DNA of 60,997 bases from Candidatus Hinthialibacteria bacterium OLB16 (GCA_001567115.1 LMZT01000141.1:1-60997), one strand, 5' to 3'; shown: positions 23,432 through 54,969, counted from the first letter of the stretch. Notes: a model not told the origin generated them from the letters alone. Program-made: numbers and translations.

Positions 23432-23450
23432 AAGGCGGTTCCTTTCGTCC

Positions 23451-25302: not shown

Positions 25303-25658
25303 GGTTGTTTCGGAGTCGCCGGCCGGATCACAGGAGTGGCAGGGTTCGATGATTCTTGCACTACCAGCTCAATCGCTCGATCGATTGGAATGGCGACAAT
25401 CCCACTGGCTTTGTCGATCCATCGATAGGCGTGCAGGTTTTCTGTTTGCTGGGCTTTAAGGGAGGCCAGTTCCTCGGGGATCTGGTTGACGATTTTCCGT
25501 TGATACTCCTTTTTCTCTACATTATAAAAAAGGGTCTGCAAAGCCACAATGATGACAACCAGCAGGACAGTCCCCACAAATCCAACCAGGACAGTCCTGG
25601 GAGTGTTCGGATCCGAATCGGCATCGGAAACAGGCGGGAGATGATGGTCTTCAGGCAT
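25299..25658 (-). CDS. Small single-span membrane protein of the ACIII/caa3 operon
   Basis: A 119-residue protein with one N-terminal helix (TVLVGFVGTVLLVVIIVALQTLFY) and a short extracytoplasmic domain (EYQRKIVNQIPEELASLKAQQ, then a Pro/Thr tail). It overlaps actF by eight bases and the Sco gene by four. Its place between the two complexes suggests an accessory subunit or link between ACIII and the oxidase, but I do not recognise a family. Confidence 0.7.
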   Translation of the reverse strand: MPEDHHLPPVSDADSDPNTPRTVLVGFVGTVLLVVIIVALQTLFYNVEKKEYQRKIVNQIPEELASLKAQQTENLHAYRWIDKASGIVAIPIDRAIELVVQESSNPATPVIRPATPKQP

Positions 25659-32500: not shown

Positions 32501-32624
32501 GGGGGAGATCTGTCCCTGCGGCAAATTCAGGCCCCAATTCAGCCAGGAATTCCGGTGTGAGAGCCAGTTCCTGCAAGCTCCTCCAGTAATTCCGTCCGTT
32601 TTCCGTCTGGTCTATCGATGGCAT
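29565..32624 (-). CDS. actB: Alternative complex III subunit ActB (MopB-like plus iron-sulfur), first copy
   Basis: About 1019 residues. A Tat-like signal ([20 protein letters not shown], also lipobox-like) is followed by a molybdopterin-oxidoreductase-like domain without any cysteine ligands near its start (the equivalent stretch reads [21 protein letters not shown]), as in classical ACIII. The last about 260 residues form an iron-sulfur domain with four clusters: [35 protein letters not shown] and CTYC...ACQTAC. Start ATG at 32624 overlaps actA by 13 bases; the TTG at 32633 is less likely. It relays electrons between ActC and ActA on the periplasmic side. Confidence 0.94.
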
Positions 32625-33286
32625 AACGAGCAATCCGTCAGTTTTTCGCGATCCCGTATTTTATATTCGGCCTTGAGGCGCTCTCCCAATGCTTCCTGAT
32701 CCTCGAGGGGGACATAATCCATCGTGGTCACTTCATCCAATGGGCGTAGATGTTTTTCCGGGTTCCGGTGGCAATCCAGGCACCATCCCATGGTTAAGGG
32801 CTGGTCCTGGCTGACAACCTCCATTTTGTCGATCCGGCCATGGCAGGAGGCGCACCCGACTCCGCGGTTCACATGAGCGCTGTGGTTGAAATAGACAAAA
32901 TCAGGCAGATCATGGATCCGGACCCACTCGACCGGCATCCCTGTAGCGTAGCTTTCGCGAATGGGAATCAGCTTCTCGCTGGTCGATCGGATGTTTGCAT
33001 GACAATTGAGGCAGACCTGTGTGGGAGGAATGGAGGCCTGCGCTGAGGTGTCGACTGTATTATGACAATAACGGCAATCAATTCCCAATTCACCAGCATG
33101 GAGTAAGTGGCTGTATGCGACCGGTTGCTTGGGAGCATAACCGATTCTCTGGGTCCCTGGTGCGGCGGCGTAGATGGCGACAGCGAGGACATAAGCCCCG
33201 CCGAATCCCACGATACTCGCCCCGATAACCAGAAATTTGTTGACCCACTTCGGAAATGGCAGTGGTGCGGGCGAAATTTTCAGCAC
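32612..33286 (-). CDS. actA: Alternative complex III pentaheme cytochrome ActA, first copy
   Basis: A 224-residue membrane-anchored cytochrome c with five CxxCH motifs (CRYCH, CLNCH, CASCH, CLDCH, CSLCH). One N-terminal helix (FLVIGASIVGFGGAYVLAVAIYAA) holds it in the membrane. The stretch YSHLLHAGELGIDCRYCH matches ActA. It heads the 12-gene operon. GTG is the only usable start near the N-terminus; the Shine-Dalgarno is poor (see the promoter entry). Confidence 0.93.
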   Translation of the reverse strand: MLKISPAPLPFPKWVNKFLVIGASIVGFGGAYVLAVAIYAAAPGTQRIGYAPKQPVAYSHLLHAGELGIDCRYCHNTVDTSAQASIPPTQVCLNCHANIRSTSEKLIPIRESYATGMPVEWVRIHDLPDFVYFNHSAHVNRGVGCASCHGRIDKMEVVSQDQPLTMGWCLDCHRNPEKHLRPLDEVTTMDYVPLEDQEALGERLKAEYKIRDREKLTDCSLCHR

Positions 33287-36502: not shown

Positions 36503-37202
36503 GCCTCATCAGGGTTTGCCGGAGCCAGCTTGCCAGCCTGTTCCCGATGAGCCATCAGTGAATTTGCCGATCCATTTTGTGGCTGACAGAATTTCAGCAT
36601 TGGCATACTTGTGTAAAATTACAAACATGGAATGCTTTACTGTCATGCCTCCTCCAAGGGTAAACGAACATTCGTCGTACCAGACTTCCATTATTAGGCA
36701 TCCGAAGGGCAGGATTTTACTGTTTTTGGCTGGCGGGCCGGGCGCCTTTGGACGGCTGAATCTGCTTGTAAATCATTATATTTCAGTAGGTTATATTCGA
36801 TCAACGGGGTGGGCTGGATGGGGAAACCACCACCCTGAAATGTCTTGACAACCGGCCGATTCTGGTTGTAGAGTTCCCGATCTAGATGTCCAAAATGATT
36901 CCAGGCACACCAGAATTTTTATCCTGTGGCCTTGATCAAATGGGTGTTTCTAGCAGAGGCAAGGGAATGTTAGGTAGTTATTATTCAGTAAACAAAATCA
37001 GCAATACGATAGCATCACAGGCAGAGGGGTGGTTCAAAAGCTCCCCCTATTGTCAAAAATCATCTGCTGCAGCCTGTGGCGCATCCCTTATTTTTCACAA
37101 CAGTATGGCAACGATGGCTGATGGCTCGCTCTCATGGAGCTCTGGCTGTCGATGAAAAAAAACCAGGTGGACATTCCGGCATTCAAGAGGGATTACATCA
37201 CC
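36503..37202. other. 700-bp intergenic region before the nar operon
   Basis: No open frame here has a believable ribosome binding site or recognisable protein; frames at 36516-36848 and 36886-37155 are short and of random composition. The best promoter candidate for the nar unit is TTGACA (36845-36850), 18 bases, TAGAGT (36869-36874). I looked for FNR-type dyads and found only half-sites (TTGATCAA near 36931; ATCAA near 36800). The length and position suit a regulatory region responding to oxygen or nitrate, but no operator is convincing. Confidence 0.35.
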
Positions 37203-38102
37203 ATGTTGAATGAAGATTCAAAACGACGAAACCCAGGGATTAAGCGGATCCTCCCACAGGCACTGTTGTGGATCGCAGCAGCTGCCCTGGTGATTACATT
37301 GTGCCCCAGGATCGCAGCGGCCCAGGAAACAGCGGCATTTTTTAAACAGAACTGTGCCAGCTGCCACACCATTGGAGGCGGAAGGCTCACCGGCCCCGAC
37401 CTGAAGGATGTGACCAAACGGCAGGACCGGGCCTGGCTTCGGGATTTCATCATGAACCCACAGGCGAAGATCAATGCGGGGGATCCTTATGCAGTCAAGC
37501 TTCACGAGGAAGCCCGTGGTGTTCTGATGCCATCGATTCCGGGCATGACCGCAGAGAAAGCGGATTTTCTGCTGGACCTGGTCGAAGCAGAATCAGCCCT
37601 GCCGGAATCACAGTTCAAAGGGCTTCAGATTTCCAATGAGCCATTTACTCCAGAGGATATCCAGCGTGGAATCGCTCTGTTCACTGGCCACCAGCGGCTG
37701 AAAAATGGCGGCCCCGCCTGCATCTCCTGCCATACCATTCCCGGACTCGGTGGACTGGGCGGCGGCCAGCTGGGACCGGATCTCACACGGGTCTATGAAC
37801 GCCTCCAGGGGCGCACCGCCCGTCAGTGCATGGCTCTCAGCCCCCGCCATGCCGACCATGCAGTCCATTCCTGCGCGATGCCCCCACTCGATCCCGCTGA
37901 AATCCATGCCCTGGTCGCTCTGTTCGAAGACACAGCCAAAAACGGCCGGATCCTCCCAAATGTGGCAGTGCTGAATTTTTCACTGCTCGGATTAGGGGGA
38001 GCGGTTTTAGTTCTTGTGCTATTTGACCTGATCTGGAGAGCGCGTTTCCGCTCTGTCCGGAGAAACCTGGTCCAAGACAATCAGCTGCGAGGTTTGCCAT
38101 GA
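37203..38102 (+). CDS. narC: Diheme cytochrome c of the nar operon (NarC-like), probable compensating frameshifts
   Basis: A secreted, C-terminally anchored cytochrome of about 299 residues. The signal sequence core is [15 protein letters not shown]; two heme sites follow (CASCH, CISCH) and a C-terminal helix ([20 protein letters not shown]). In Thermus, a diheme cytochrome NarC is the first gene of narCGHJIK and is needed for the enzyme; the order here is the same. Between 37821 and about 37876 the frame reads unlikely residues, while the neighbouring frame gives [17 protein letters not shown], a normal end for such heme domains. An extra C at 37819-37821 and a missing base near 37876 would explain it. 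ATG 37203 is chosen; 37134 and 37152 are alternatives. It overlaps narG by ATGA. Confidence 0.78.
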
Positions 38103-41100
38103 AACTGAGAAACGCCATCAGTTGGATCAAAGATGAATGTGATCCGAAGCTGAGGGGTTGGGAAGAGTTCTACCGGAATCGGTGGCAGCACGACAAGGTT
38201 GTCCGCAGCACTCACGGTGTCAACTGCACCGGTGGATGCAGCTGGGCAATCTATGTCAAGGAAGGCATCGTGACATGGGAAATGCAGCAGCTCGATTACC
38301 CCGAGCTCGAAGCTGGATTGCCCCCTTACGAGCCACGGGGCTGCCAGCGTGGAATCTCCTTCTCCTGGTACCTCTACAGCCCCCTTCGAGTGAAATACCC
38401 TTATATCCGTGGGGCCTTGCTCGATCTGTGGCGCAAGGCTCGAGCCGAATTCGATGATCCGGTGGATGCCTGGAAATCGATGGTGGAAAACCCCGAATCC
38501 CGGTCCCGCTGGCAGATTGCCCGTGGCAAGGGCGGATTTCGCCGGACCACATGGGACACAGTCCTCGAACTGATCGCCGCTGCCAACATCTATACCATCA
38601 AAAAACACGGGCCGGATCGTATCGCTGGTTTCTCACCCATCCCGGCCATGTCGATGATCAGCTATGCAGCCGGTTCCCGGATGCTGCAGCTGATGGGTGG
38701 CTTGTCCCTGTCTTTTTATGATTGGTATTGTGATCTTCCCCCCGCGTCTCCCGAAATCTGGGGTGAGCAGACCGATGTTCATGAATCCGCTGACTGGTAC
38801 AACGCCAAGCTGCTGGCTGTCATGGGCTCCAATCTGAATATGACCCGCACCCCGGATGTCCACTTCGCGGCCGAAGCGAGGCATAACGGCACGAAGATGT
38901 GGGTGTTCGCCCCTGATTTCAATCAGGTTGCCAAATACGCCGACGAATGGGTGTCGCTCAATGCCGGCCAGGATGGCGCCTGGTGGATGGCCGTCAACCA
39001 TGTCATTCTCAAAGAAGCCCACCATGAGAAACAGGTTCCTTACTTCATCGAGTACAACAAAGAATTTACCGACAGCCCTATCCTGATCGAGCTTGAAGAA
39101 ACCGGTGAAAAGGGTGTCTATCGCCCTGGTCAATGCCTGCGCGCCAACCGCCTGTCCCAGTACCAGGATGTTGAGAATGGCGACTGGCAGTTCCTCATGT
39201 GGGACAATGCCGAGCAAAAGCCCAAGATGCCGCTGGGAAGTGTTGGGTTCCGCTGGGCCAAATCGGACAAGGGCAAATGGAACCTGCAACTGAAGGATGG
39301 CAAGGATGGGAGCCGGATCGATCCAGCCCTGACTTTGCTCAACTCGAATGACGAAGTAGTGCAGGTGCTGCTCGATGATTTTGGAGAGGCCAGCGAGCTG
39401 AAGCGCGGAGTTCCGGTCAAAAAGATTGTCACCAGTTCCGGGAAAACAGTCCTGGCAGCGACAATATATGATGTCATCATGGCTCAGTATGGGGTTTCCC
39501 GCGGGCTGCCAGGCGATTATCCCAAGGATTACGACGACGATTCTCCCTACACTCCGGCCTGGTCCGAAAAATACACAGGCATGAGCCGGGATATGGTGAT
39601 CCGGTTTGCCCGCGAGTGGGCGCTCACCGCGGAACTGACTCGTGGCAAATGCACCATCATCATCGGTGCTGGAATCAACCACTGGTACCATGGAAACCTG
39701 ATGTACCGTGCCGGCATCAATGCGCTGATGCTGTGCGGCTGTGTCGGTGTCAATGGGGGTGGGCTGGCCCATTATGTCGGCCAGGAGAAACTCGCCCCGG
39801 GTGAGTCCTGGTCCAGCATTGCGATGGGCAAGGACTGGTATCCGCCCTCGAGGCTCCAGAATGCTCCCAGCTGGCACTATGTCAACACCGACCAGTGGCG
39901 TTATGAAAAATCATTCACCGATTACCACACAGTCCCCAGGCATCAGCCTCCGGATTCGCTTGCCAAAGGCCACACCATGGATGCCCAGGTCCGGGCGGTG
40001 CGGGGAGGCTGGCTGCCTTTTTACCCGCAATTCAACAAGAGCCCTCTGGCCATTGTAAAAGAAGCCGAAGAAAAAGGGTGCGATACGGAAGAGAAGGTTG
40101 TCTCCGAAGTGGTCCGCCAGTTGAAATCCGGTGAATTGAAGTTCTCTGTGGAAGACCCCGATGCCGCTGAAAACTGGCCGCGGGTCTGGTACATCTGGCG
40201 CGGAAACGCCCTCATGGCCAGCTCCAAGGGGCATGAATATTTCCTCAAGCACTATCTCGGCACACACACCAATGCGGTCGCCGAGGAAATCGCCGGGGAT
40301 TCCGTGCAGGAAGTCAAATGGTACGAAAATGCTCCGCAGGGCAAGATGGACCTGGTTGTGGATATCAATTTCCGCATGGATACATCCGCGCTGTATTCCG
40401 ACATTGTTCTGCCGACTGCGACCTGGTATGAAAAAGCCGACCTGAACTCCACCGACATGCACAGCTTCATTCATCCGCTTTCGGCGGCTGTTCCGCCCTG
40501 CTGGGAATCGAAGAGCGACTGGCAGATTTTCCAGGCTATCTCGAAAAAGTTTTCGGAAATGTCCGAAAAGCATTTCCCGGGAACTGTCAAAGATCTTGTG
40601 GCCACTCCCCTTGCGCATGATTCACCGGCAGAGATCGCACAGCCGGATATGCGCGACTGGAAAAAAGGCGAAATTGAAGCCATTCCCGGCAAGACAATGC
40701 CCGGCATGAAGGTTGTCCAACGGGACTATAAGAACCTGCACAAACAGTTCATCTCGTTTGGGCCAATGGCGAAAAAGAACGGCCTGGGGGCGCATGGAAC
40801 ACATTACCAGATCGAGGATCTCTATGAGGAATCCTTGAAGCGGCTGCCGACCGAGGAGTGGGGTGGCGAGAAATACCTCTCACTCAGGAACGATGCAGAC
40901 ACCTGCAACATTGTCCTAGAATTCGCGACAGTGACCAACGGAGAACTGGCTTACCGTTCCTACAAGAATATGGAGGAGAGGGTCGGGCTTCCTCTGGCGC
41001 ATCTGGCCGAAAAATCGCGGTCAGTTCGAGCGACTTACAAAGGCATACAGACACGGCCTCAGCGTTTTGTTAACAGCCCCATGTGGTCGGCGCTCATCGA

Positions 41101-41749
41101 GAATGGCCGCGCCTACTCGCCCTTCACATACAATGTCGAGGCACTGGTACCCTGGCGCACTCTCACCGGCCGCCAGCATTATTACCTCGATCATCCGATG
41201 TACCTCCAGTTCGGGGAGCATGTCCCGACTTACAAGCCGAAACCCCTGCCCACCCAGTATGCCGATATCCGCTTCACCCAGGCTGCGGGCATGTCGAAAA
41301 TGTTGAACTACCTGACTCCCCATGGGAAATGGCACATCCATTCAACCTATGGCGACAATCAGCGCATGACCACTCTCTCCCGCGGGGTTGAGCCTCTCTG
41401 GATCAATGACAAAGATGCCGCCGAAATCGGTGTGAACGACAACGACTGGGTGGAAGTTTACAACGACCATGGTGTGGTCGTGACACGCGCGGTGGTCAGT
41501 GCGCGCATCCCGCCCGGTGTGTGCATCCAGTACCATTCACCCGAACGCACCTACTCGGTGCCGAAATCGCCGCTGCGCAACAACCGCCGGGCCGGTGGTC
41601 ATAATAGTCTCACTCGCACCCGTCTGAAGCCGAACCTGATGGCGGGTGGTTATGGTCAGTTCACATTCCACTTCAATTACTGGGGTCCGGTCGGATGCAA
41701 CCGTGACACGCACATTCTGGTGCGCAAACTGCCTGAGCTGAAGTGGTAG
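38099..41749 (+). CDS. narG: Respiratory nitrate reductase alpha subunit
   Basis: A 1216-residue Mo-bisMGD enzyme reducing nitrate to nitrite. His39, Cys43, Cys47 and Cys82 form the FS0 cluster site ([19 protein letters not shown]), and Asp212 in [12 protein letters not shown] is the molybdenum ligand; all lie exactly ten residues earlier than in E. coli NarG. There is no twin-arginine signal, so the active site should be cytoplasmic. It is followed at 19 bp by narH. A nitrite oxidoreductase NxrA role is possible in principle, but narJ, narI and narK beside it favour nitrate reduction. Confidence 0.97.
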
Positions 41750-41768
41750 TGGTAAAGGAGCCGAGATC

Positions 41769-43259
41769 ATGAATGTTCGCTCGCAAGTATCCATGGTGTT
41801 CCACCTCGATAAGTGTATCGGTTGCCACACCTGCAGTCTGGCCTGCAAAAACATCTGGACAGACCGAAAAGGCACCGAGTACATGTGGTGGAATAACGTC
41901 GAAACCAAACCCGGAACCGGGTATCCCGCCCTCTGGGAAGACCAGGAAAAATTCCGTGGCGGGTGGGAAAAGAAGAATGGGCATATCCGCCTGCGCTCGA
42001 CCGGAAAAGCCCGGATTGTCACCAACATTTTCCACAATCCTCACATGCCCAGCATGGATGATTACTACGAGCCGTGGACCTACGACTACCAGCACCTCTT
42101 CAATGCCCCTGAAGGCCCGGATCAGCCGACAGCCATCCCCGTCTCGATGGTGACCGGCGAGTATCTCAATATCGAATCAGGCCCGAACTGGGATGATGAT
42201 CTCAGCGGCTCTCCTGTCTATGCGGAAAATGATCCAAACCTCGAAGGCCTCTCCGAGGAGCAGCGCCAGCAGCTTTTCGCGATCGAACAGCTAGTCTTCT
42301 TTTACTTCCCGCGAATCTGCAACCACTGCCTGAACCCGGCCTGTGTGGCTTCCTGCCCCTCGGGCGCACTCTACAAGCGCGGCGAAGATGGCATTGTCCT
42401 CCTGGACCAGAAGCGATGCCGTGCCTGGCGCTCCTGTGTGTCCGCCTGCCCGTACAAAAAGGTTTTCTACAACTGGTTCACCGGCAAGTCCGAAAAGTGC
42501 ATCCTCTGCTACCCGCGTGTCGAAACCGGCCAGGCCCCGGCATGTTTCCACTCCTGTGTGGGACGCATCCGTTATCTGGGGGTCCTCCTCTACGATGCGG
42601 ACCGGATCGAGGAAGTCTCCAACCTTCCCATGGAGGAGATGATCGAAGGCCAGCGCTCCCTGATTCTCGATCCTTTCGACCCGCATGTGATCGAAGAGGC
42701 TCGCAAGAATGGCATCCACGATTCAGTGATCCAATCCGCCCAGAATTCGCCAGTGTATAAATTCGTCAAAGTCTGGCGCCTGGCTCTGCCTCCGCACATC
42801 GAGTACCGCACCATGCCGATGCTGTTCTATGTCCCGCCTCTCGCTCCGGTCATGTCCACACGCCAGAACGAGGTGCTGAACAGTGTCAGCAAGGATCTCT
42901 TCCACGATATCGATGATGCCCGGGTGCCACTCAAGTTTCTCGCCAACCTTTTTGGTGGCGGACAGGAAGGCAAGGTCGTCTATGCCCTCCGCAAGCAGAA
43001 AGCGGTGCGCTGGTACCGCCGCGCTCTGACTGTCGGTGATGTGGACCGCGAAACCGCCGAACGGATGCTGCGTGAGGCGGACTGCACAGCCGAAGAAGCC
43101 GAAATGATTTACCAGCTCACCTCGCTGTGCACCTTTGAGCAGAGGTTCGTCATTCCCCCGATGTACCGTGAAGAAGCCATCGAAGCGATGAGGGATCCGC
43201 TTGAAGCCAAACAGGGAGCAGGATTCGGCTTCCTGAGCGGGCCGCGGAGAGGATTATGA
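41769..43259 (+). CDS. narH: Respiratory nitrate reductase beta subunit
   Basis: A 496-residue electron-transfer subunit with four iron-sulfur clusters: CIGCHTCSLACKNIW, CNHCLNPACVASCPSGA, CRAWRSCVSACPYKK (Trp in place of a Cys gives the expected [3Fe-4S] cluster) and CILCYPR...CFHSCVGRI. AAAGGAG lies ahead of the ATG. It overlaps narJ by four bases. It carries electrons from NarI heme b to NarG in the cytoplasm. Confidence 0.97.
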   Translation: MNVRSQVSMVFHLDKCIGCHTCSLACKNIWTDRKGTEYMWWNNVETKPGTGYPALWEDQEKFRGGWEKKNGHIRLRSTGKARIVTNIFHNPHMPSMDDYYEPWTYDYQHLFNAPEGPDQPTAIPVSMVTGEYLNIESGPNWDDDLSGSPVYAENDPNLEGLSEEQRQQLFAIEQLVFFYFPRICNHCLNPACVASCPSGALYKRGEDGIVLLDQKRCRAWRSCVSACPYKKVFYNWFTGKSEKCILCYPRVETGQAPACFHSCVGRIRYLGVLLYDADRIEEVSNLPMEEMIEGQRSLILDPFDPHVIEEARKNGIHDSVIQSAQNSPVYKFVKVWRLALPPHIEYRTMPMLFYVPPLAPVMSTRQNEVLNSVSKDLFHDIDDARVPLKFLANLFGGGQEGKVVYALRKQKAVRWYRRALTVGDVDRETAERMLREADCTAEEAEMIYQLTSLCTFEQRFVIPPMYREEAIEAMRDPLEAKQGAGFGFLSGPRRGL

Positions 43260-43795
43260 AAGAGCTGCAGATCAACGCCTATGATGCATTGGCCAGGATA
43301 CTGACCTATCCCACACCGGATTTTTCATCCAGGGTCGATGATTGCTGTGATGCTCTGCGGACCATCTCCCCTGAGAGCAGTGTGCTCGTGTCCGAGTTTA
43401 TCGGGCAGGTTGGCGGAATGCCACTCGAGGATCTGGAAGAACTGTATGTAAAGACCTTTGATATGAATCCGGCCACCACCCTGGATTTGGGGTGGCAGCT
43501 GTTCGGGGAAGAGTATAACCGGGGCCTGTTCCTGGTGAAGCTGAGGACTCTGATGCAGACGTATGAACTGGGTGAAAGCAGCGAACTTCCTGACCATCTC
43601 ACCCATGTTCTCGCGGTTCTCGCACGCATGGATGAAGAAACCGCCCTGGATTTCGCCACAGCCTGCATCATCCCGGCTCTGCGGAAAGTCCTGGAAGGTG
43701 TTCCTGCTGAAAATCCTTATCATGGGCTGGTTGAGGCAGTATTGAAATTGCTGGAGTCCCGATATGGGGCGGTTTTGGAGGAGGTCAGTCAATGA
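43256..43795 (+). CDS. narJ: Nitrate reductase assembly chaperone
   Basis: A 179-residue all-helical TorD/NarJ-family chaperone. The motif LEELYVKTFDMNPATTLDLGWQLFGEEYNRG is characteristic. It inserts the molybdenum cofactor into NarG before membrane attachment. It overlaps narH and narI by four bases each. Confidence 0.93.
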   Translation: MKELQINAYDALARILTYPTPDFSSRVDDCCDALRTISPESSVLVSEFIGQVGGMPLEDLEELYVKTFDMNPATTLDLGWQLFGEEYNRGLFLVKLRTLMQTYELGESSELPDHLTHVLAVLARMDEETALDFATACIIPALRKVLEGVPAENPYHGLVEAVLKLLESRYGAVLEEVSQ

Positions 43796-44481
43796 GCAAT
43801 TATCACGACCTGCTGTTGTTTGCGGTGTTGCCTTATCTGTCGGTGTTTGTCCTGCTGATTGTCAGCATCCAGCGTTATCGTGCACAGACATTCAGTTTCT
43901 CGAGCCTGTCCTCGCAGTTCCTTGAGAACAAGATGCACTTCTGGGCGCTGGTTCCATTCCACTATGGTATCCTGACAGTCATTGCGGGCCATTTTGTGGC
44001 TTTTTGTGTCCCGAGAAGCATTCTGGCCTGGAACAGTGTCCCGGTCAGGCTCTACATTCTGGAAGTTTCTGCGCTCATCGCGGGGCTGCTGACTCTGCTC
44101 GGGCTGATTCACATGATCGCCCGCAGGGCGACTGTCTCAAAAATAAGGACAGTCACAAGCAAGGTGGACTGGGTTCTTTTTGCACTGCTGGTGGTCCAGA
44201 TCGTAACAGGGATCCTTGTCGCTGTGCTGTATCCGTGGGGGTCCTCCTGGTATGCGGCGACAATGACGCCTTATCTCTGGTCGCTGCTGCAGTTCAACCC
44301 GGATATCACCTATGTGAGCGCCCTGCCGCTCATGGTCAAGCTGCACATTGTGAATGCGTTTATCGTAGTCGGCCTGTTCCCATTCACCCGCCTGGTGCAC
44401 ATCCTGGTGGTGCCGAACCCTTACCTCTGGAGAAGAACCCAGGTGGTGCGGTGGTATGGAGAAGCGAGAAGGGCCGGTTGA
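43792..44481 (+). CDS. narI: Nitrate reductase gamma subunit (cytochrome b)
   Basis: A 229-residue membrane subunit with five helices that anchors NarGH and oxidises quinol with two b hemes. The four ligand histidines are in PFHYGI, AGHFVAF, KLHIVNA and RLVHILV. It overlaps narJ by ATGA; narK follows after 35 bp. Confidence 0.95.
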   Translation: MSNYHDLLLFAVLPYLSVFVLLIVSIQRYRAQTFSFSSLSSQFLENKMHFWALVPFHYGILTVIAGHFVAFCVPRSILAWNSVPVRLYILEVSALIAGLLTLLGLIHMIARRATVSKIRTVTSKVDWVLFALLVVQIVTGILVAVLYPWGSSWYAATMTPYLWSLLQFNPDITYVSALPLMVKLHIVNAFIVVGLFPFTRLVHILVVPNPYLWRRTQVVRWYGEARRAG

Positions 44482-44516
44482 AGCCGGAGCGAAATTAATT
44501 CCCGGGAAAGGAACCC

Positions 44517-46022
44517 ATGGACAGCAGCGGCAAAGCGATATCCGTTCTGACAATGAACACACTGGCGTTTGTGGTGTGTTTTGCATGTTGGATGCTGAAT
44601 GGCGTGCTGGTCACATTCCTGGTTGAACAGCAGGTGTTCCACTGGTCGGATTCTCAGATCGGATGGCTTATCGGAATTCCAGTCCTGACCGGGGCGACCC
44701 TTCGCCTTCCCGTAGGGGTTCTCACCGACAAGTATGGTGGACGAATCATATTCGCCGTGGTCATGCTCCTGTCCGCCATCCCGATGTACCTGTTGAGCAT
44801 GGCCACTGAATACTCCCACTTCATGCTCTGCAGCCTGGGTTTTGGCCTGGCGGGAACCTCTTTCGCTGTCGGGGTGGCTTATACATCCGTCTGGTTTCCC
44901 AAAGAGAGGCAGGGAACTGTTCTCGGCATCTTCGGTGCGGGAAATGCCGGTGCCGCCATCACAAGTATCTTTGCGCCCAGGCTTCTGCGCTTCCTGACAG
45001 ATGGCGGGGAGCAGATCGAAGGCTGGCGCAACCTGCCGAAAATCTATGCGGGCGTGCTGGTCGCCATTACTGTCCTATTCTGGATGTTTACCTACTCCCG
45101 GAAGGCCGACACTTCCCAGGTCAAAGGCCTCGCTGAACGGCTCAGTCCGCTCAAGCACATCAGGGTCTGGCGTTTCGGCCTCTACTATTCTCTGATGTTC
45201 GGCGGGTTTGTGGCGCTCTCGCAATGGCTGATCCCTTACTATGTCAGCGCCTATGGCATGACCATTGCCACAGCGGGCCTGATGGCTTCGATCTTCAGCC
45301 TTCCCTCGGGTGTCATCCGTGCCCTGGGTGGAGTGCTCTCAGATGTGTGGGGGCCAAGGCGTGTCATGTACCTGGTTCTTTCCAGCTGTGCTGTCTGCTG
45401 CGCCCTCCTGATCGTGCCACGCATGGATATCATGTCGCCAGGCAAAGGTGTCATGGCCAAACGCGCCGGAACGGTCACAGCGATCCATGCGGGCGAAATC
45501 ATTGTCGACAACATTGTCCATCCCTTCAAAACATCCGAAGGGCAGACACTCTCCGATGATGAAAAAAATTCCTCGATGCTGATCCTGCCAAAGGCCAGGA
45601 TGTGGCAGAAACCGACTGTCAATGTCGGGGACCAGGTCACCAAAGGGCAGCTCCTGGCGAAAGGTGAAACACACATCTACTTCCAGGCCAATGTCTGGGT
45701 TTTCACATTCCTGCTGTTCGTTGTCGGCTTCATGATGGGAATCGGCAATGCCGCGGTCTTCCGCCATATCCCGGACTATTTTCCCCGCGAGGTTGGAGTT
45801 GTCGGCGGAATTGTCGGAGCCTTGGGGGCCTTGGGTGGTTTCTTCTGGCCGATCTTTTTCGGATACATGCTCGCCTGGACCGGGCTTTGGACAATGTGCT
45901 GGGTGTTTTTCACGATCCTGTCCATCGTCTGCCTGTGGTGGATGCACAAGGTGATCCAGCGGATGCTGCGTGAAGCGGCCCCCGCACTCCGGGTGAACAT
46001 CGAAAATGCCGAGCCCAGGTGA
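44517..46022 (+). CDS. narK: NarK-family nitrate/nitrite transporter with extra internal domain
   Basis: A 501-residue MFS transporter of the nitrate-nitrite porter family. The NNP signature GAGNAGAAI is at about 141-149 and a second nitrate signature GIGNAAVFRHIP near 408-419. Between transmembrane helices, residues 303-388 form a hydrophilic insert whose two halves (GTVTAIHAGEIIVDN and VNVGDQVTKGQLLAKGE) look like a biotinyl/lipoyl-type barrel-sandwich fold. AAAGGAA precedes the ATG. It should import nitrate and export nitrite for NarGHI. Confidence 0.92.
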   Translation: MDSSGKAISVLTMNTLAFVVCFACWMLNGVLVTFLVEQQVFHWSDSQIGWLIGIPVLTGATLRLPVGVLTDKYGGRIIFAVVMLLSAIPMYLLSMATEYSHFMLCSLGFGLAGTSFAVGVAYTSVWFPKERQGTVLGIFGAGNAGAAITSIFAPRLLRFLTDGGEQIEGWRNLPKIYAGVLVAITVLFWMFTYSRKADTSQVKGLAERLSPLKHIRVWRFGLYYSLMFGGFVALSQWLIPYYVSAYGMTIATAGLMASIFSLPSGVIRALGGVLSDVWGPRRVMYLVLSSCAVCCALLIVPRMDIMSPGKGVMAKRAGTVTAIHAGEIIVDNIVHPFKTSEGQTLSDDEKNSSMLILPKARMWQKPTVNVGDQVTKGQLLAKGETHIYFQANVWVFTFLLFVVGFMMGIGNAAVFRHIPDYFPREVGVVGGIVGALGALGGFFWPIFFGYMLAWTGLWTMCWVFFTILSIVCLWWMHKVIQRMLREAAPALRVNIENAEPR

Positions 46023-46082
46023 GGCCACGGCATTCCAGCGTGGAGCTGCACCACAAAATGCAGCCATTGATTTGGGGGATTT

Positions 46083-47186
46083 ATGGCAACTGATCTGACA
46101 GGAGCCAAATCCCAGGATTGCAGCCGGGGGCAGGTTCTGCTGAGCAGCATCGAGAACCTCCATCCCGTGTACTTCGCCATGGTTATGGCGACAGGAATTG
46201 TGGCGGTTGCCAGCCATTTGATGGAGATGGACAGGATCGCATTAATGCTCACAGTGCTGAACATTGCCATGTACATCTGCCTCTGGGTCATGACACTTGC
46301 AAGGATTGTCCTCTACCCCAGGCGATTCCTTCTCGATTTGATCGACCATGGGAGAGGTGTCGGCTTTTTCACCACTGTGGCCGGCACCTGTGTTCTGGGC
46401 ACACAGTTTGTCGTTATCGTCAAAGATTACACAACTGCAACGATCCTCTGGTACATCGGCATGGGCCTCTGGGCGGCGCTGACATACACAGTTTTTGCTG
46501 CATTTACAGTGAAAGAAAAGAAACCTACGCTCGCCGAAGGAATCAATGGCGGCTGGCTTGTCGTTGTGGTTGCGACACAGGCTGTGTCGAACCTGGCTGG
46601 CCTCCTGCTCCCCTGCTTTCCAGAATATGAGGAGCCGGTGATCTTTCTGGCGCTCAGTTTCTGGCTCTGCGGCGGGATGCTCTACATCTGGATCATCTCC
46701 CTGATATTCTACCGTTACACCTTTTTCTCCTTCGCTCCTTCAGACTTGAACCCGCCTTACTGGATCAACATGGGGGCGATGGCGATCTCGACCCTGGCCG
46801 GGACCCGCCTGATCATCAATGCGCCACACTCGCATTTCCTCCAGGAACTGCTTCCGTTTCTCCATGGCTTTACCATTTTCTTCTGGGCTACAGCCACATG
46901 GTGGATCCCGATGCTTGTCATCCTCTCGGTCTGGCGGCATGTCTACAAGCGCTTCAAGTTTTCATACGATCCGCTGTATTGGGGTGCGGTGTTTCCCCTT
47001 GGCATGTATACAGCCTGCACTTTTCAACTGGCGCAGGTGACGCACCTGCCGTTCCTGTTTGCCATTCCACGCCTCTTCATCTATGTCGCCCTGGCCGCGT
47101 GGATTCTGATCGCTGCAGCATTTGTTCGGGAGTTGATCCTCTCGCTTTACAGCGCCGGCCAGAGGCAGCCCGTGTGCGCGACATAG
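46083..47186 (+). CDS. TehA/SLAC1-family anion channel or transporter
   Basis: A 367-residue membrane protein with about ten helices of the TehA/SLAC1/Mae1 family (ENLHPVYFAMVMATGIVAVASHL, IFFWATATWWIPMLVIL, PLGMYTACTFQLAQVTHLP). Members carry nitrate, chloride, malate or tellurite-related anions. Placement right after narK suggests passage of nitrate, nitrite or another anion; this is inference. GGGGGA lies seven bases before the ATG. Distinct from narK in mechanism, it may work as a channel. Confidence 0.87.
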   Translation: MATDLTGAKSQDCSRGQVLLSSIENLHPVYFAMVMATGIVAVASHLMEMDRIALMLTVLNIAMYICLWVMTLARIVLYPRRFLLDLIDHGRGVGFFTTVAGTCVLGTQFVVIVKDYTTATILWYIGMGLWAALTYTVFAAFTVKEKKPTLAEGINGGWLVVVVATQAVSNLAGLLLPCFPEYEEPVIFLALSFWLCGGMLYIWIISLIFYRYTFFSFAPSDLNPPYWINMGAMAISTLAGTRLIINAPHSHFLQELLPFLHGFTIFFWATATWWIPMLVILSVWRHVYKRFKFSYDPLYWGAVFPLGMYTACTFQLAQVTHLPFLFAIPRLFIYVALAAWILIAAAFVRELILSLYSAGQRQPVCAT

Positions 47187-47202
47187 AGTCTGTTGAGGAA
47201 CC

Positions 47203-47244
47203 ATGCTGATGAACGACCGCCTGATGCAAAAAATGATGATTTGA
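47203..47244 (+). other. Met-rich 13-codon micro-ORF before actA2
   Basis: A tiny frame, ATG to TGA, encoding 13 residues of which five are Met. GAGGAACC stands just before its ATG and the same GAGGAACC recurs just before the actA2 ATG at 47252. It may be translated and couple TehA to actA2, or be an accident of a local duplication of the ribosome-binding site. Confidence 0.25.
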
Positions 47245-47251
47245 GGAACCA

Positions 47252-47905
47252 ATGGGCAAGAAGATTACGACATATGTGCTGCTGCTGGGCATTGCTCTCG
47301 GGGTACTCGGTTTTTTTGTGGCAACTGCTGGTTTTCACCTGCCAGGAAACAATCAGGACTACGAGCCGACCCAGCCAATCGCCTTTTCACACCGCCTCCA
47401 TGCGGGTGAATTGCAGATCGACTGCAACTACTGCCACTTTGGAGCGGAACAGAGCCGCCACGCCGGGATTCCACCCGCTAATGTGTGCATGAACTGCCAT
47501 AAATTCGTGACTGCGCCTCTCGGAGCGATCCAGGCCGAAGACAAACTTGCCACAAAAGAAAACCGGCCGCCCAAAAAAGTGGTCTCAACCGAAATCGCCA
47601 AAATCTACGACGCGCTCGCTCTGGATTCGGAAGGCAAGCCGGATCCCGCTAAACAGCCCAAGCCCATAGAATGGGTCAAGATCCACAATGTTCCCGATTT
47701 CGTTTATTTCGATCACCGCGCCCACGTCAATGCCGGCGTGGATTGCCAGAAGTGCCACGGCAATGTGGGAACCATGGAAGTCGTGCGCCAGGTCGAAACC
47801 CTGGCGATGGGGTGGTGCGTGAATTGTCACCGCGAAGTCAATAAAATCGGCGTAAACGGCAAGGCTGTGCAGGCGTCTCAAAACTGCACAACTTGTCATT
47901 ACTAA
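47252..47905 (+). CDS. actA2: Alternative complex III pentaheme cytochrome ActA, second copy
   Basis: A 217-residue cytochrome with an N-terminal anchor (VLLLGIALGVLGFFVATAGF) and five CxxCH motifs (CNYCH, CMNCH, CQKCH, CVNCH, CTTCH). It is colinear with ActA of the first cluster but carries an additional roughly 25-residue loop (LATKENRPPKKVV... to KQPKPIEW) between the second and third heme. It opens the second ACIII cluster on the plus strand. Confidence 0.93.
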   Translation: MGKKITTYVLLLGIALGVLGFFVATAGFHLPGNNQDYEPTQPIAFSHRLHAGELQIDCNYCHFGAEQSRHAGIPPANVCMNCHKFVTAPLGAIQAEDKLATKENRPPKKVVSTEIAKIYDALALDSEGKPDPAKQPKPIEWVKIHNVPDFVYFDHRAHVNAGVDCQKCHGNVGTMEVVRQVETLAMGWCVNCHREVNKIGVNGKAVQASQNCTTCHY

Positions 47906-47913
47906 GGCAGGAA

Positions 47914-50900
47914 ATGACCATGTCCAGCAATCGTTCGAAAACGTACTGGAGAAGCCCACTGGAAGCAGGCGGAAAGCCGGATGATCCCGGTGCCGGCAAA
48001 AGCGATGTCGCCCTGTGGAGGGAGAATACTCCCGACCGCATCGACAGGCGCAATTTTCTCAAAGCCACCGGTTTTACCCTGGCCCTGGGAAGCCTGGCCG
48101 GATGCAATCGGGCGCCAGTCAACAAGGCTGTTCCCTTCCTGCAGCAGCAGGAAGGCCATGTGCCTGGTGTCGCGGTCTATTACGCAACTGTATGCGGGGC
48201 TTGCCCTTCAGCCTGTGGCGTAATCGCAAAGAACCGCGATGGACGGCCCATCAAGCTGGAAGGGCTTCCAGGCCATCCTCTCTCTCAAGGCGGCCTGTGT
48301 GCTATTGGCCAGGCTTCACTTCTCGGCCTCTATGACAGCCGAAGATTCACCACTCCACAGAATGGTGGCAAAGAATGCTCCTGGGATGATGTGGACCAGG
48401 CCATTGCTGCAAAGATCAATGAGGTCCGCACCCAGGGGGGCGCTGTCCGGTTCCTGAGCAATACTGTCAGCAGCCCCACAGAACGGGCTGTCATTCAAAG
48501 GTTCCTGGCTTCATTCAAAGATTCAAAGCATGTGGTTTATGATCCGCTTTCCGCTTCGGCCATCCTCGATGCACACCAGCGGATGTTCGGGGTTCGTGCT
48601 CTGCCTCGCTATCACTTCGAGAAAGCGGCAGTGATTGTGTCGTTCGATGCGGATTTCCTCGGAACCTGGATCAGCCCGGTCCAGAACTCGGCGGGGTACC
48701 GTGCCAGCCGCAACCTCGAAACCAATGGCGGGAACATGTCCCTCCATGTGCAATTCGAGTCGCGCATGTCGTTGACCGGCACCAATGCCGACAAACGGTA
48801 TCGCATCGCCCCCGGGGAACTCGGGCTGGCGCTCTCACTTCTGGCCCAGCGCATCGCTGCAGCCTCATCCGCTCCTTTCAATGCCGGCGCGCCTGGCGCT
48901 TCACCGGTTCCTGAGGCTGAACTCGATGAACTCGCCAAACGCCTGCTTGAAGCTCGCGGGCGCAGCCTCGTGATCTCCGGCAGCCAGGATGTCGCAGTGC
49001 AGATGCTCTGCAACTTTGTGAACAACCTGCTCGGCAACTATGGCGCAACAGTCGATCTGTCTGGCCCATCGTTCCAGAAGCAGGGCAATGATGGAGACCT
49101 TGCCGGCCTGGTTCAGGAGCTTCAGGAAGGCAAAATCGCCGCACTCTTTGTTTATGGCGCCAATCCGGCTTATGACCTCCCGGGCGGAACTGCGCTCCTG
49201 GAGTCCCTGAAACGTGTGGGCCTGGTGGTGGCGCTCTCGGAACGGCCCGACGAAACAACCGCTGCAGCCCACTTTGTCTGCCCCACTGGCCACTCACTCG
49301 AATCCTGGAGCGATGCAGAAGCGGCAGGCGGGGTGGTCAGCATTCGCCAGCCTGTGATTCAGCCGCTCTTTGACACTCGCCCCATGATCGAATCCCTCAA
49401 TGCCTGGATGGGGCTCCTCAGAGCGCATACGATTCGGTCCATGCCCATTGGCAGGCAGCAGTTCATCCAAGATCAACCGGAGGGGCTGACTTCCGTGCCT
49501 TCTGGGATAAGGCAGTTCATGATGGGTTCGCTGCTGTCACCCCGGTGCCTGTAACGGTTGGCGCAATAAATACTGCCGCGGTCTCCGGCATTCCGGCAGC
49601 CAGTGAAGGTGAAAACTACACACTGGTGCTCTACCCCAAAGTGGGGCTTGGTGATGGGCGCCATGCCTACAACTCATGGCTTCAGGAGCTTCCCGATCCG
49701 GTCACCAAAGTCACCTGGGATAATTACGCCTGTTTGTCTGTCGCCGCTGCCAGGGAACTGGGTGTGGAACAGGGGGATGTCCTGCGCATCGCTGCCGGAG
49801 GTTCGGATGAAAGCAGCACACTGGAACTTCCAGCTTATATTCAGCCGGGGCAGCACGACAAGGTTGTTGCGGTTGCCATGGGCTATGGCCAGGTTTCCTC
49901 CGCACGTTTTGTCGATGCCGGACCCGAATGGATCCTCAGGCGCCCGACAGTCGGTGACAATGGATTGGTCGGCAAGAATGCCGCTCCACTTCTTTCTCTT
50001 GAGGGGGGTGGGCTTCGATATATACGGCCCGGAGTCTCCGTCTCAAAAACAGGCAGGAAAACCGAACTGGCCTGCACTCAGACTCACCATACAATCACAG
50101 TTCCGGCGGAGCTGGCGACAGCCGACACACTCCGGCGGCCGATCGTTCAGGAAACAACCCTGGCCGCATTTCTTAAGGACCCGCATTCCGGCCAGCATCA
50201 CTTTCATGTTTTCGAGGGGGACCTGTATCCCGCGGAGGACCATCCCTACACCGGCCACCGGTGGATGATGGCCATCGACCTGACTTCCTGCTCCGGCTGC
50301 TCCGCGTGTGTTGTCGCCTGCCAGGTTGAAAACAATGTGCCGGTCGTGGGCAGGGATGAAGTTCTGCGCAGGCGTGATATGCAATGGATGCGCATCGACA
50401 GATATTACTCCGGCGAAGGGGATGAGGTGGATGTCATCCACCAGCCGATGCTCTGCCAGCATTGCGAGAATGCATCCTGTGAGAATGTTTGCCCTGTTCT
50501 CGCCACGGTCCACACGGATGAGGGCCTCAATGCCCAGGTTTATAACCGTTGCGTCGGCACCCGTTACTGCGCCAACAACTGCGCCTACAAGGTGCGGCGG
50601 TTCAACTGGTTCAATTACCTGCATGAGGACGAGGTCGAGAACCTGGTGCTCAATCCCGATGTCTCGGTCCGTTCACGAGGAATCATGGAGAAATGCTCTT
50701 TCTGTGTGCAGCGCATTCAGGAAGCGAAGATTGAAGCCAAACGCCATGGGGAGCCACTCGCCGATGGCGCGGTCAAACCCGCCTGCCAGCAGTCATGCCC
50801 CATGCAGGCGATCGTGTTCGGCGATGCCAATAACCCGGACAGCCAGATCGCGAAGCTGATTCAAAGCCCGAGGCAGTTTCGTGTTCTTGAGGAGATCAAT

Positions 50901-50967
50901 GTGCGCCCCTCGGTCCACTACCTGACCCTGGTCCGCAACCGCACAGAAGAGGAAGGATCAGTACACC

Positions 50968-50975
<8 letters not shown>
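47914..50975 (+). CDS. actB2: Alternative complex III subunit ActB, second copy (frameshifted near 49424)
   Basis: After one-base repair, about 1020 residues. A Tat-like signal ([20 protein letters not shown]) precedes a MopB domain that keeps a complete N-terminal four-cysteine motif ([14 protein letters not shown]... GGLCAIG), unlike ActB of the first cluster. The frame breaks after MGLLRA: restoring one base at about 49423-49424 gives [15 protein letters not shown] and runs into the second frame, which carries the four-cluster domain ([39 protein letters not shown]...ACQQSC). ATG 47914 or 47920 is preferred to the TTG at 47893. Confidence 0.9.
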
Positions 50976-52418
<1,443 letters not shown>

Positions 52419-52422
<4 letters not shown>

Positions 52423-52943
52423 ACCGCCGCATTTTCATGAGCGTCCACGAATGCGAGGAGGATCTCCTCGGCGTTGTGAAGGCTGTCAGGCAGCAAGGCC
52501 TGAAGATTGTCGACATCTATACACCCTATCCAGTGCATGGATTGGACCGTGCCGCAGGCTTCGGCCCCTCGCGCCTGCCATGGATCTGCTTTGTGCTGGG
52601 GTTGCTGGGTGCCGGTCTTAAAGTCTGGTTCGAGTTCTGGACAACTGCCCAGGATTGGCCGATCAATGTGGGAGGCAAACCCTGGGATTCCCTGCCGGCA
52701 TTTATCCCGGTCACCTTTGAGGTGATGGTCCTTTTCGCCGGAGTGGGCACTGTGATCGCCCTTTTTATCGCGACACCGCTTTATCCGGGAAAGAAGGCGG
52801 TTACTCCCTTCGCACGGACCACCGATGACCGTTTTGCCCTGCTGCTTGAAGAAGAAGATGCGACCTTTGACCCGGACCAGGTCAGGATGCTCTGTGAACG
52901 CTATAACGCAGTGCGTGTCGAGGAGCGCGAGGAGAAGTATTGA
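52419..52943 (+). CDS. actD2: Alternative complex III subunit ActD (DUF3341), second copy
   Basis: A 174-residue protein with two central helices and the DUF3341 features [12 protein letters not shown] and [27 protein letters not shown]. Here it is a separate gene, whereas in the first cluster it is fused to the cytochrome. It overlaps actC2 (ATGA) and actE2 (TGATG). Confidence 0.92.
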
Positions 52944-53717
52944 TGACAAGAACGCAACTCAACTGGATGCTGCTCATTGTGCTTGTCGCACTGGCCGGCC
53001 TCACCCTGGCCATGGAGCGTGATTCATCCAAACCAAATTTTGAAATCATGCCTGATATGGCGCACTCGGTTCCTTACGACTCCTTTGCGCCCAATCCAAA
53101 TTTCTACGATGGCAAGACATTGCAGCCGCCGATCCCCGGCACGATCGCCAGAGGGGAACAACCCTTGTATTACAACGCCACCCCGGAGGATGCCATACGC
53201 GCCGGTGAAGAACTCCACAATCCCTGCTCGGCCACCGATGAGGCAGCGCTTGCCAGGGGTGCAAAGGTTTTCGCTGTGTACTGCGCCCCCTGCCATGGAG
53301 GTGCAGGCCGGGGGGGATGGCCTGGTTGCTCAACGCGGTTTTCCTCCTCCTCCATCTTTTCATGCTGATCGCGCCCTCACAATGAAAGACGGGCAGATGT
53401 TCCATGTGGTGACCTATGGATTCGGAAACATGCCCTCTTATGCTGCCCAGGTATCCCGTGAAGACCGGTGGAAAGCGATCCTCCACATTCGTGACCTGCA
53501 ACGGAAAGAAGCTGCCGCCGCCCAGAACCAGGCAGCTGCACCCGCAGTGCCCGCAGAGCCTGTTGCACCTGCAGCATCCGCTGAACCTGCTGCACCTCCA
53601 GTCCCCTCAGCACCTGCAGTGCCCGCAGCACCTGCTACCGGCACAATTGAAATCCCGGCACCGGTCCAACCAGCTCCAGTTGAACCAAATGTTACAGCCC
53701 CAGGAGTTTCTCAGTGA
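52943..53717 (+). CDS. actE2: Alternative complex III cytochrome ActE, second copy (one-base insertion near 53313)
   Basis: A monoheme cytochrome c with a signal/anchor helix (LNWMLLIVLVALAGLTLAM), the heme site YCAPCHG and distal Met in GFGNMPSYAAQ. A run of seven G (53310-53316) shifts the frame just after the heme; removing one G gives GRGDGLVAQRGFPPPPSF, the family sequence. The corrected protein ends in about 70 residues of almost pure Ala, Pro, Val and Glu repeats. ATG 52943 overlaps the actD2 stop. Confidence 0.88.
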
Positions 53718-54969
53718 TTCAAGCGAAAAGCACCGAAAGACCCCTTTCTTTTTTTGAGACGACGGTCGAACACCCGATTCCGGATCTTTCGAACCAGCAT
53801 GTCCAGCAGCGCCTGTGCGGTTTCAAACTGTCTGCAACTGGAACCCGGGCTTTAGCGGGCCTGGTTCTCATCGGTGTGGCCTCATTCGGCATCGGCCTGG
53901 TCACCTCCCCGGATCAGGCCTGGTCCAGCCTCCTGATGTCGAGCTTCCTGTTGCTCAGCCTGGGATTGTCAGGGCTTTTCTTCATCGCCGTGTCTTATCT
54001 GGCGGGCGCCGGTTGGTACATAGCGATGCGGCGGATCCCCGAAGCCATGGTCTCACTCATTCCTGCGGGTGCCCTGGGTGTCGCACTCGTGCTGATTTTT
54101 CACTCCTCTATTTATCCCTGGGTCGCAGGACACGAGGGTGGTGAGCTCAAAGGCTTCAAAGGATACTGGCTGGACTACAGTTTCTTCCTCTGCAGAGCAG
54201 TCGCCTATGTCGCCATCTGGCTGCTCTTTGCAGCCTTCATGCTGCGGAATTCCCGAGTGCAGGATCGTGATGGCAATCTGTCTCACACCAAACGCAACAC
54301 AGTCCTGTCGGCTTTCTTCATTGTCGCTTTCTCGCTTTCATACTGGCTGGCAAGCACCGACTGGATCATGACCCTCGAACCTCACTGGTACAGCACGATC
54401 TTTGGTGTCTACAACTTCTCCGGGCTGTTCTCCAGTGGAATCGCCGGCATGATCCTCATCTTTATCTGGCTGAAGCGGTCCAGCCTCTGGGAAGCTTCAT
54501 CAATGAAGAACACCTGCATGATCTCGGCAAACTGCTGCTTGGATTCACGACATTCTGGGCCTATATCTGGTTCAGCCAGTATATGTTGATCTGGTATGCC
54601 AACATCCCTGAAGAAACCTCTTATTACATCACCCGGCTGAATGGGGCATGGGGATCCCTCTTTGTCGCCAACCTCGTTCTGAACTGGATTGTCCCGTTCC
54701 TGACACTCCTGCCCCGGGCGACCAAACGCAGCACCAGTGTCATGGCCAAGATCGCTGCCGTTGTTCTCGTCGGCCGCTGGCTCGATGGCTATCTGATGAT
54801 CTACCCCGCTGTTCACAAAGGCGATCCGGGGATCGGCATCTCGGAAATCGGCATCACAATTGGGACTCTCGCTCTTGCATGCCTGCTGATTTCGCGTGCC
54901 TTGGGCAAAGCGGCACTTCTTCCTCTGCGTGATCCGTATCTGCAGGAGAGCCTGCATTACCACCAGTAA
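53714..54969 (+). CDS. actF2: Alternative complex III subunit ActF (NrfD-like), second copy (frameshifted near 54484)
   Basis: A membrane subunit of about 418 residues after repair, with roughly ten helices. The first frame contains DWIMTLEPHWYSTIFGVYNFSG and ends in random sequence; the second continues HDLGKLLLGFTTFWAYIWFSQ and MLIWYANIPEETSYYITRLNGAWG. One C missing near 54484 (CC for CCC) joins them as PLGSFINEEHLHDLGK. GTG start overlaps the actE2 stop (GTGA). It is the last gene of the second ACIII cluster; no oxidase follows. Confidence 0.9.

What the first reader, a model, noticed from the sequence alone, without database searches (positions are those of the whole stretch)
37134..54969. 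Nitrate reductase, anion channel and a full second ACIII in one plus-strand block
A NarC-like cytochrome, narGHJI, narK, a TehA/SLAC1 protein and actA-F follow one another with short gaps and overlaps over 17 kb. ACIII usually pairs with a terminal oxidase; here it sits with nitrate respiration and no oxidase. It could pass quinol electrons to periplasmic nitrite, NO or N2O reductases, to the NarC-like cytochrome, or run in reverse. This is the best candidate for an undescribed electron-transfer module in the window.
Basis: partly seen in the sequence, partly recalled or inferred. Interest (0 to 1): 0.72.

Follow-up and report, generated by a model that had tools for sequence, protein, structure and literature searches.

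The report
Nitrate-linked alternative complex III operon
A block of genes that joins a nitrate-respiring enzyme to a second kind of respiratory proton pump is a real unit, shared by many Planctomycetota and here apparently acquired from elsewhere; its pump carries an extra iron-sulphur motif that no solved relative has, but three of its genes are frame-shifted in this genome.

Summary
The block is real: diheme cytochrome c (NarC-like), narGHJI, narK, a SLAC1 channel and actABCDEF, all on the plus strand, 37134-54969. Two corrections. First, act2 is not intact as assembled: actB, actE and actF each carry a frameshift (about 49.44, 53.30 and 54.48 kb). All relatives that could be judged keep these genes unbroken. 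Second, the order is not unique. In Planctomycetota, 30 of 42 ACIII loci of this clade carry nar genes upstream on the same strand, 21 of them complete from cytc to actF. The arrangement was noticed in 2023 (PMC10732223) but not recognised as ACIII. The nar half is Thermus-type narCGHJIK, and the window's own relatives lack a close NarG, so the module was probably acquired. New here: (i) ActB of this clade keeps four cysteines of the FS0 [4Fe-4S] site, 46/46 sequences, missing from all four solved ActB sequences; (ii) some ACIII operons without narGH carry a NarI-like protein that lost exactly the two heme ligands feeding NarH, fused in one case to the diheme cytochrome in a nosZ operon. Best reading: quinol to ACIII to NarC to NarI to NarGH. 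The direction of electron flow is inferred. New variant of a known kind.

The parts
37134..38102 (+). narC-like diheme cytochrome c with C-terminal membrane anchor
   Evidence: 2 CxxCH; Pfam Cytochrom_C; 29% to Thermus NarC, E 2e-9; domain 1 matches the N-terminal part of Flavobacterium ActA 6btm_A, E 7e-12
38099..41749 (+). narG, nitrate reductase alpha (no Tat motif seen, so probably cytoplasmic)
   Evidence: TIGR01580 1502.7 bits; 73-77% to Planctomycetota NarG; 62% to Thermus NarG
41769..43259 (+). narH
   Evidence: Nitr_red_bet_C and Fer4_11; 61% to Thermus NarH
43256..43795 (+). narJ chaperone
   Evidence: Pfam Nitrate_red_del
43792..44481 (+). narI, diheme b membrane subunit; all four heme ligands kept, Lys86 of E. 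coli replaced by Arg
   Evidence: Pfam Nitrate_red_gam 9.8e-59; alignments
44517..46022 (+). narK, nitrate/nitrite transporter with an inserted soluble stretch about aa 300-390
   Evidence: Pfam MFS_1; 34% to Thermus NarK1
46083..47186 (+). SLAC1/TehA anion channel; no counterpart in any related cluster
   Evidence: Pfam SLAC1 1.4e-49; 0 of 43 related loci
47252..47905 (+). actA2, pentaheme cytochrome c
   Evidence: 5 CxxCH; Pfam Cytochrome_C7
47893..50975 (+). actB2, one gene split by a frameshift near 49440: Mo-enzyme-like domain with four FS0 cysteines plus Fe-S domain
50968..52422 (+). actC2, NrfD-type quinol-binding subunit; R. marinus His139, Ser164, Asp169, Asp253 all kept
   Evidence: Pfam NrfD; 6btm_C E 3e-190 and alignment to 6f0k_C; residues from PMC8076601
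52419..52943 (+). actD2
   Evidence: Pfam ActD 2.5e-50
52940..53717 (+). actE2, monoheme cytochrome c, frame-shifted near 53300 at a run of seven G
53714..54969 (+). actF2, second NrfD-type subunit, frame-shifted near 54480
   Evidence: intact homologue in L047 matches 6f0k_F E 4e-51
21747..33286 (-). comparison only: ACIII-1 (actA to actF) with its own oxidase, not part of the module

Best explanation
The block is a nitrate respiration operon built from two known machines: a Thermus-type nitrate reductase with a diheme cytochrome subunit (NarC-GHJI plus NarK) and a six-subunit ACIII of a distinct clade. Most likely ACIII-2 oxidises menaquinol at ActC and pumps protons. Electrons run through the ActA/ActE hemes to NarC, which sits on NarI, and then through the two b hemes to NarH and NarG, where nitrate is reduced inside the cell. 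That would make NarGHI the terminal partner of ACIII, as caa3 is aerobically, and add a coupling site to nitrate respiration. NarI probably still takes quinol electrons directly, and NarC can also release electrons to other periplasmic acceptors. Shown here: gene content, conserved order, homologies, heme and Fe-S ligand patterns, quinol-site residues, different origin of the two ACIII copies. Inferred: direction of flow, docking of NarC on ActA, proton gain. In this genome three act genes are frame-shifted, so this copy may be decaying or mis-assembled; the mechanism is proposed for the conserved module.
For: Conserved, co-directional order: 30 of 42 Planctomycetota loci, 21 complete. Gene-fusion links for the cytochrome: it is fused to a NarI-like protein in L047, and its domain 1 matches the N-terminal part of Flavobacterium ActA; in several Bacteroidota loci it hits just upstream of the ActA match. 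NarC binds NarI in Thermus two-hybrid tests (PMC7694296). Where narGH are absent, the NarI-like protein keeps the heme ligands on the periplasmic side (His66, His187) and loses the pair on the NarH side (His56, His205); nar-linked NarI keeps all four. No NirK or NosZ in G000 and almost none across module genomes. Independent pairing: Thermogutta terrifontis has complex III genes beside narGHI (PMC5673643), and Haloferax has a Rieske/cytochrome b pair in its nar operon (PMC2483277). Quinol-site residues of ActC are kept.
Against: All evidence is genomic; no expression or biochemistry. NarI keeps an apparently working quinol side (Lys to Arg, the same as in Thermus), so it does not need ACIII. 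All 40 genomes searched, which include the module genomes, have at least one heme-copper oxidase-family gene, so the ACIII could serve an oxidase; PMC10732223 saw oxidase genes downstream in five instances. Thermus runs NarCGHI without ACIII beside it. NirS was tested only in the window's genome. The act genes are frame-shifted here. Operon neighbours need not touch.
Confidence: 0.42

Rival explanations
1. Branching hub: NarI and ACIII-2 are two parallel quinol oxidisers that both fill a periplasmic cytochrome c pool through NarC. The pool serves an oxidase or other periplasmic reductases when nitrate runs out, as proposed for Thermus NarC. ACIII does not feed NarG.
For: Thermus NarC is needed for growth on nitrite or NO while complex III is repressed (PMC7694296). 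In L047 the cytochrome/NarI-like fusion and ACIII stand in a nosZ operon without NarG. Oxidase-family genes in all 40 genomes searched.
Against: NirK and NosZ are nearly absent from module genomes. In the window's genome the nitrite and NO reductases found are of quinol-linked types.
Confidence: 0.3
2. The enzyme runs as a nitrite oxidoreductase: electrons from nitrite go NarG to NarI to NarC, part to an oxidase and part uphill through ACIII-2 in reverse to the quinone pool.
For: Nitrobacter has a closely similar cluster acting as nitrite oxidoreductase (PMC7694296). PMC10732223 found related Nxr-like genes in Planctomycetota.
Against: NarG scores as canonical nitrate reductase and is 62% identical to Thermus NarG. 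The genome carries NrfHA, which consumes nitrite.
Confidence: 0.1
3. Co-regulation only, and in this genome decay: the acquired act2 half is a redundant quinol:cytochrome c oxidoreductase that is being lost, while nar works alone.
For: Three frameshifts in 7.7 kb of act2, none in the other roughly 20 kb assessed in the window, one in 19 kb elsewhere. ACIII-1 with its own oxidase is present and of native origin.
Against: The assembly is a draft in 181 contigs, and two of the three sites lie in or near G runs, where both errors and mutations occur. No stops other than those caused by the shifts; cofactor ligands kept. Conservation across many genomes argues for function of the module itself.
Confidence: 0.15
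4. The six-gene half is a new NrfAH-like nitrite reductase, as suggested in PMC10732223.
For: Pentaheme subunit and NrfD-type membrane protein next to nar.
Against: The act subunits match solved ACIII chains: ActB 5e-187, ActC 3e-190, ActF homologue 4e-51, ActD Pfam. ActA matched no NrfA-type family at E 0.001, and a separate NrfHA is encoded.
Confidence: 0.03

Closest known systems
Alternative complex III (Rhodothermus marinus 6f0k, Flavobacterium johnsoniae 6btm, 6lod, 8k9e)
   Same: Six subunits actABCDEF in order; ActB with Mo-like and Fe-S domains; ActC quinol-site residues; ActA five hemes, ActE one heme.
   Different: ActB keeps four FS0 cysteines that all four solved ActB sequences lack; linked to nar and not to an oxidase; actB, E and F frame-shifted in this genome.
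Thermus thermophilus narCGHJIKT
   Same: Gene order cytc-G-H-J-I-K; NarG 62%, NarH 61%, NarI 42%, NarC 29% identity; same Arg in NarI.
   Different: No act genes follow in Thermus.
Nar plus six-gene NrfD cluster of Oslofjord tunnel MAGs (PMC10732223)
   Same: Nar genes upstream of pentaheme cytochrome, Mo/Fe-S protein, NrfD, ActD, monoheme cytochrome and second quinone-binding subunit, in 13 instances.
   Different: There the complex was not identified as ACIII, and neither the FS0 motif nor the NarI changes were reported in the passages read.
Complex III genes beside narGHI in Thermogutta terrifontis; narB/narC in Haloferax mediterranei
   Same: A quinol:cytochrome c type complex placed with narGH.
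   Different: bc1-type proteins there, ACIII here.

Membership tests
Alternative complex III | six genes actABCDEF in order, with ActD | tested here: met
   ActD Pfam 2.5e-50
Alternative complex III | ActA pentaheme, ActE monoheme cytochrome c | tested here: met
   5 CxxCH in ActA; one CAPCH in ActE, read across the frameshift
Alternative complex III | ActB as one protein with Mo-like domain and Fe-S domain | tested here: inconclusive
   Both domains present but split by a frameshift in this genome; one unbroken reading frame in 41 of 41 relatives
Alternative complex III | quinol-site residues of ActC (R. marinus His139, Ser164, Asp169, Asp253) | tested here: met
   All four aligned and kept
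Alternative complex III | no cofactor in the Mo-like domain B1 (observed in R. marinus, PMC5928083) | tested here: inconclusive
   FS0 cysteine motif present, 46/46 in the clade; the cluster itself is not testable here. A property of a solved example, not a strict definition.
Alternative complex III | quinol:cytochrome c oxidoreductase activity | not testable with these tools
   needs purified complex
Thermus-type NarCGHI nitrate reductase | diheme membrane cytochrome c encoded first, before narGHJI | tested here: met
Thermus-type NarCGHI nitrate reductase | NarG of the respiratory nitrate reductase family, NarI with four heme ligands | tested here: met
   TIGR01580 1502.7 bits; ligands kept
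Nitrite oxidoreductase (Nitrobacter type) | nitrite-oxidising physiology | not testable with these tools
   Sequence alone cannot separate it from Nar; NrfHA in the genome argues against

The most novel reading that the evidence does not exclude
An ACIII clade with a fifth iron-sulphur cluster in ActB that forms a working unit with NarC-NarGHI, so that ACIII drives nitrate reduction as it drives caa3, with the extended Fe-S wire serving a second electron exit or entry.
Probability: 0.3. Interest if true: 0.82.

Novelty: new variant of a known kind. Interest (0 to 1): 0.6.

Why it matters
ACIII is known as a partner of oxygen reductases. A conserved pairing with nitrate reductase across many uncultured bacteria would add a proton-pumping step to nitrate respiration that metabolic models do not count. 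The FS0 motif bears on an open question stated in PMC5928083: what the FeS2-FeS4 wire of ACIII is for. A clade that adds a cluster site at the Mo-like domain, and a subclade (L130, L132, L135) that lost all four cysteines together, gives natural material to test this. It also corrects a published guess that the six-gene cluster is a new nitrite reductase.

Tried and rejected
Promoter scan: 9 hits against 8.7 expected, nothing learned; a hairpin at 46045-46064 between narK and the SLAC1 gene is too weak to call a terminator. Recurring unknown neighbours of nar-act clusters: no common extra partner found. nosDF hits downstream in L140 and L143 (34%) were not followed by a nosZ test in those genomes, so I do not call them N2O operons. 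A Mo ligand in domain B1 was looked for through clade-specific conservation; only the four cysteines and a few scattered positions stand out, so a working Mo cofactor is not claimed. The apparent second frame in the NorB gene on C14 is not a frameshift: the whole protein aligns in one frame. The NosZ search by family was silent in all controls at first; it was repeated with L047's genome as a positive control, which rang. Structure prediction was not run.

Full report
What is there. The window is contig C141 of a 4.05 Mb draft genome in 181 contigs, 92.6% complete. From 37134 to 54969, all on the plus strand, lie a diheme cytochrome c, narG, narH, narJ, narI, narK, a SLAC1/TehA gene and actA to actF, with gaps of 65 bases or less or small overlaps. 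Family searches agree for the parts that have models. NarG has no twin-arginine motif at its start, so it should face the cytoplasm (sequence). A separate ACIII on the minus strand is followed by its own oxidase genes.

The act half is broken as assembled. ActB ends in one frame near 49440 and goes on in another; ActE shifts near 53300 inside a run of seven G; ActF shifts near 54480. Proteins from relatives cross each point (42, 8 and 12 queries), and in relatives the three genes are unbroken wherever they could be judged (41, 33 and 34 cases). Over the 28 kb of the window that could be assessed these are the only well supported shifts. In 19 kb of other contigs one more was seen, in a dihydrolipoamide dehydrogenase gene. 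Three in 7.7 kb against about one in 40 kb points to a local cause: true decay or a poor stretch of assembly. I cannot separate these.

The order is conserved. One scan of named genomes with the joined ActB gave relatives in Acidobacteriota, Planctomycetota, Myxococcota and Bacteroidota; two Planctomycetota loci carried nar genes just upstream. In 392 Planctomycetota genomes ActB matches fall into two groups, about 50 genomes at 39-53% identity and the rest at about 30-36% or less. I read up to 20 kb around the best 40 and two further loci. Thirty of 42 carry narG, H or J upstream on the same strand, 21 show the complete series cytc-narG-H-J-I-actA-B-C-D-E-F, and two more are cut by contig ends after narI or narK. 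The SLAC1 gene has no counterpart in any of them. The loci were chosen by likeness to the window's ActB, so the share holds for this clade, not for ACIII in general.

Origin. In an ActC tree the window's second ACIII groups with the Acidobacteriota copy L047 (98% SH-aLRT) among the Planctomycetota nar-linked copies, while the first ACIII groups with the window's own family. NarG is 73-77% identical to Planctomycetota NarG, and the five relatives of the window's class or family that were searched have no close NarG. The module was therefore probably acquired. The nar half is of Thermus type: NarG 62%, NarH 61%, NarI 42% and NarC 29% identical to the plasmid operon of T. thermophilus, in the same order and without act genes.

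Two features that I did not find described. First, ActB of this clade has C101-x2-C104-x3-C108 and C136 (numbering of the 47893 frame). They fall on the cysteine motif of the FS0 [4Fe-4S] site of a formate dehydrogenase (9vap_A), and none of the four is in any of the four solved ActB sequences. All four are invariant in 46 of 46 clade sequences, absent as a set from ten other ActB, and lost together in L130, L132 and L135. In R. marinus the Mo-like domain has no cofactor, and the role of the FeS2-FeS4 wire is called elusive (PMC5928083). By analogy with Mo enzymes an FS0 cluster would lengthen that wire (inference). A review table lists four clusters for ActB (PMC8076601). Second, some ACIII operons of the clade have a cytochrome c and a NarI-like protein but no narGH. 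In L047, L138, L140, L143 and L147 the NarI-like protein keeps the ligands that correspond to E. coli His66 and His187 and lacks His56 and His205, the pair near NarH; nar-linked NarI keeps all four (ligand roles from established knowledge of E. coli NarI). In L047 it is fused to the diheme cytochrome, and the operon begins with nosZ and nosD genes, in a genome without NarG.

How it most likely works. The diheme cytochrome is the joint. Its first domain matches the N-terminal cytochrome part of Flavobacterium ActA, and elsewhere it is fused to a NarI-like protein. Thermus NarC binds NarI in two-hybrid tests (PMC7694296). So I propose quinol to ACIII to NarC to NarI to NarGH. The genome offers little else for ACIII-2: no NirK, NosZ or credible NirS, and nitrite and NO enzymes of quinol-linked types, NrfHA and two NorB with the cytochrome-c-like domain. 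Among 34 module genomes NosZ occurs in one and NirK over its cut-off in none. Against this, NarI seems able to take quinol itself, and oxidase-family genes occur in all 40 genomes searched, so a branching role with flow to an oxidase remains open. Nitrite oxidation with reverse flow is possible but less likely, given NrfHA and the canonical NarG.

What is known. [quoted passage not shown] The subunit matches found here identify it as ACIII. Thermogutta terrifontis and Haloferax mediterranei pair nar with other quinol:cytochrome c type complexes. My literature search covers only an open-access library, so subscription papers may hold more. I rate this a new variant of a known kind.

Noticed in passing
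L047:266-9912: Acidobacteriota operon nosZ - nosD/ABC fusion - NosL-like - diheme cytochrome fused to NarI-like - actABCDEF, on one strand: an ACIII apparently dedicated to N2O reduction.
   Followed up: partly
L138, L140, L142, L143, L147: Planctomycetota ACIII operons without narGH but with a cytochrome c and/or NarI-like gene just upstream of actA; where aligned, the NarI-like protein lacks the heme ligands that face NarH. Function unknown.
   Followed up: partly
44517-46022, about aa 300-390 of NarK: NarK carries an inserted soluble stretch with a lipoyl/biotinyl-like look (VGDQVTKGQLLA); the Planctomycetota NarK of L053 aligns across it, Thermus NarK1 is about 60 aa shorter.
   Followed up: no
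46083-47186: SLAC1/TehA anion channel gene between narK and actA, seen only in this window; possibly a nitrate or nitrite path.
   Followed up: partly
L152 near 6496 (G000:C15): Frameshift in a dihydrolipoamide dehydrogenase gene of the same genome, not at a long homopolymer.
   Followed up: partly
L045:6017-8665 (G000:C137): Reading frame with 15 CxxCH motifs, a large multiheme cytochrome.
   Followed up: no
L046:905-5918 (G000:C105): Fe-S protein, a membrane protein and a six-heme cytochrome together: looks like another NrfD-type membrane complex.
   Followed up: no
L130, L132, L135: Three related nar-linked ActB that lost all four FS0 cysteines together (S, D, S/G, T).
   Followed up: yes
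52940-53717: ActE2 ends in a long Ala/Pro-rich tail after the heme domain.
   Followed up: no
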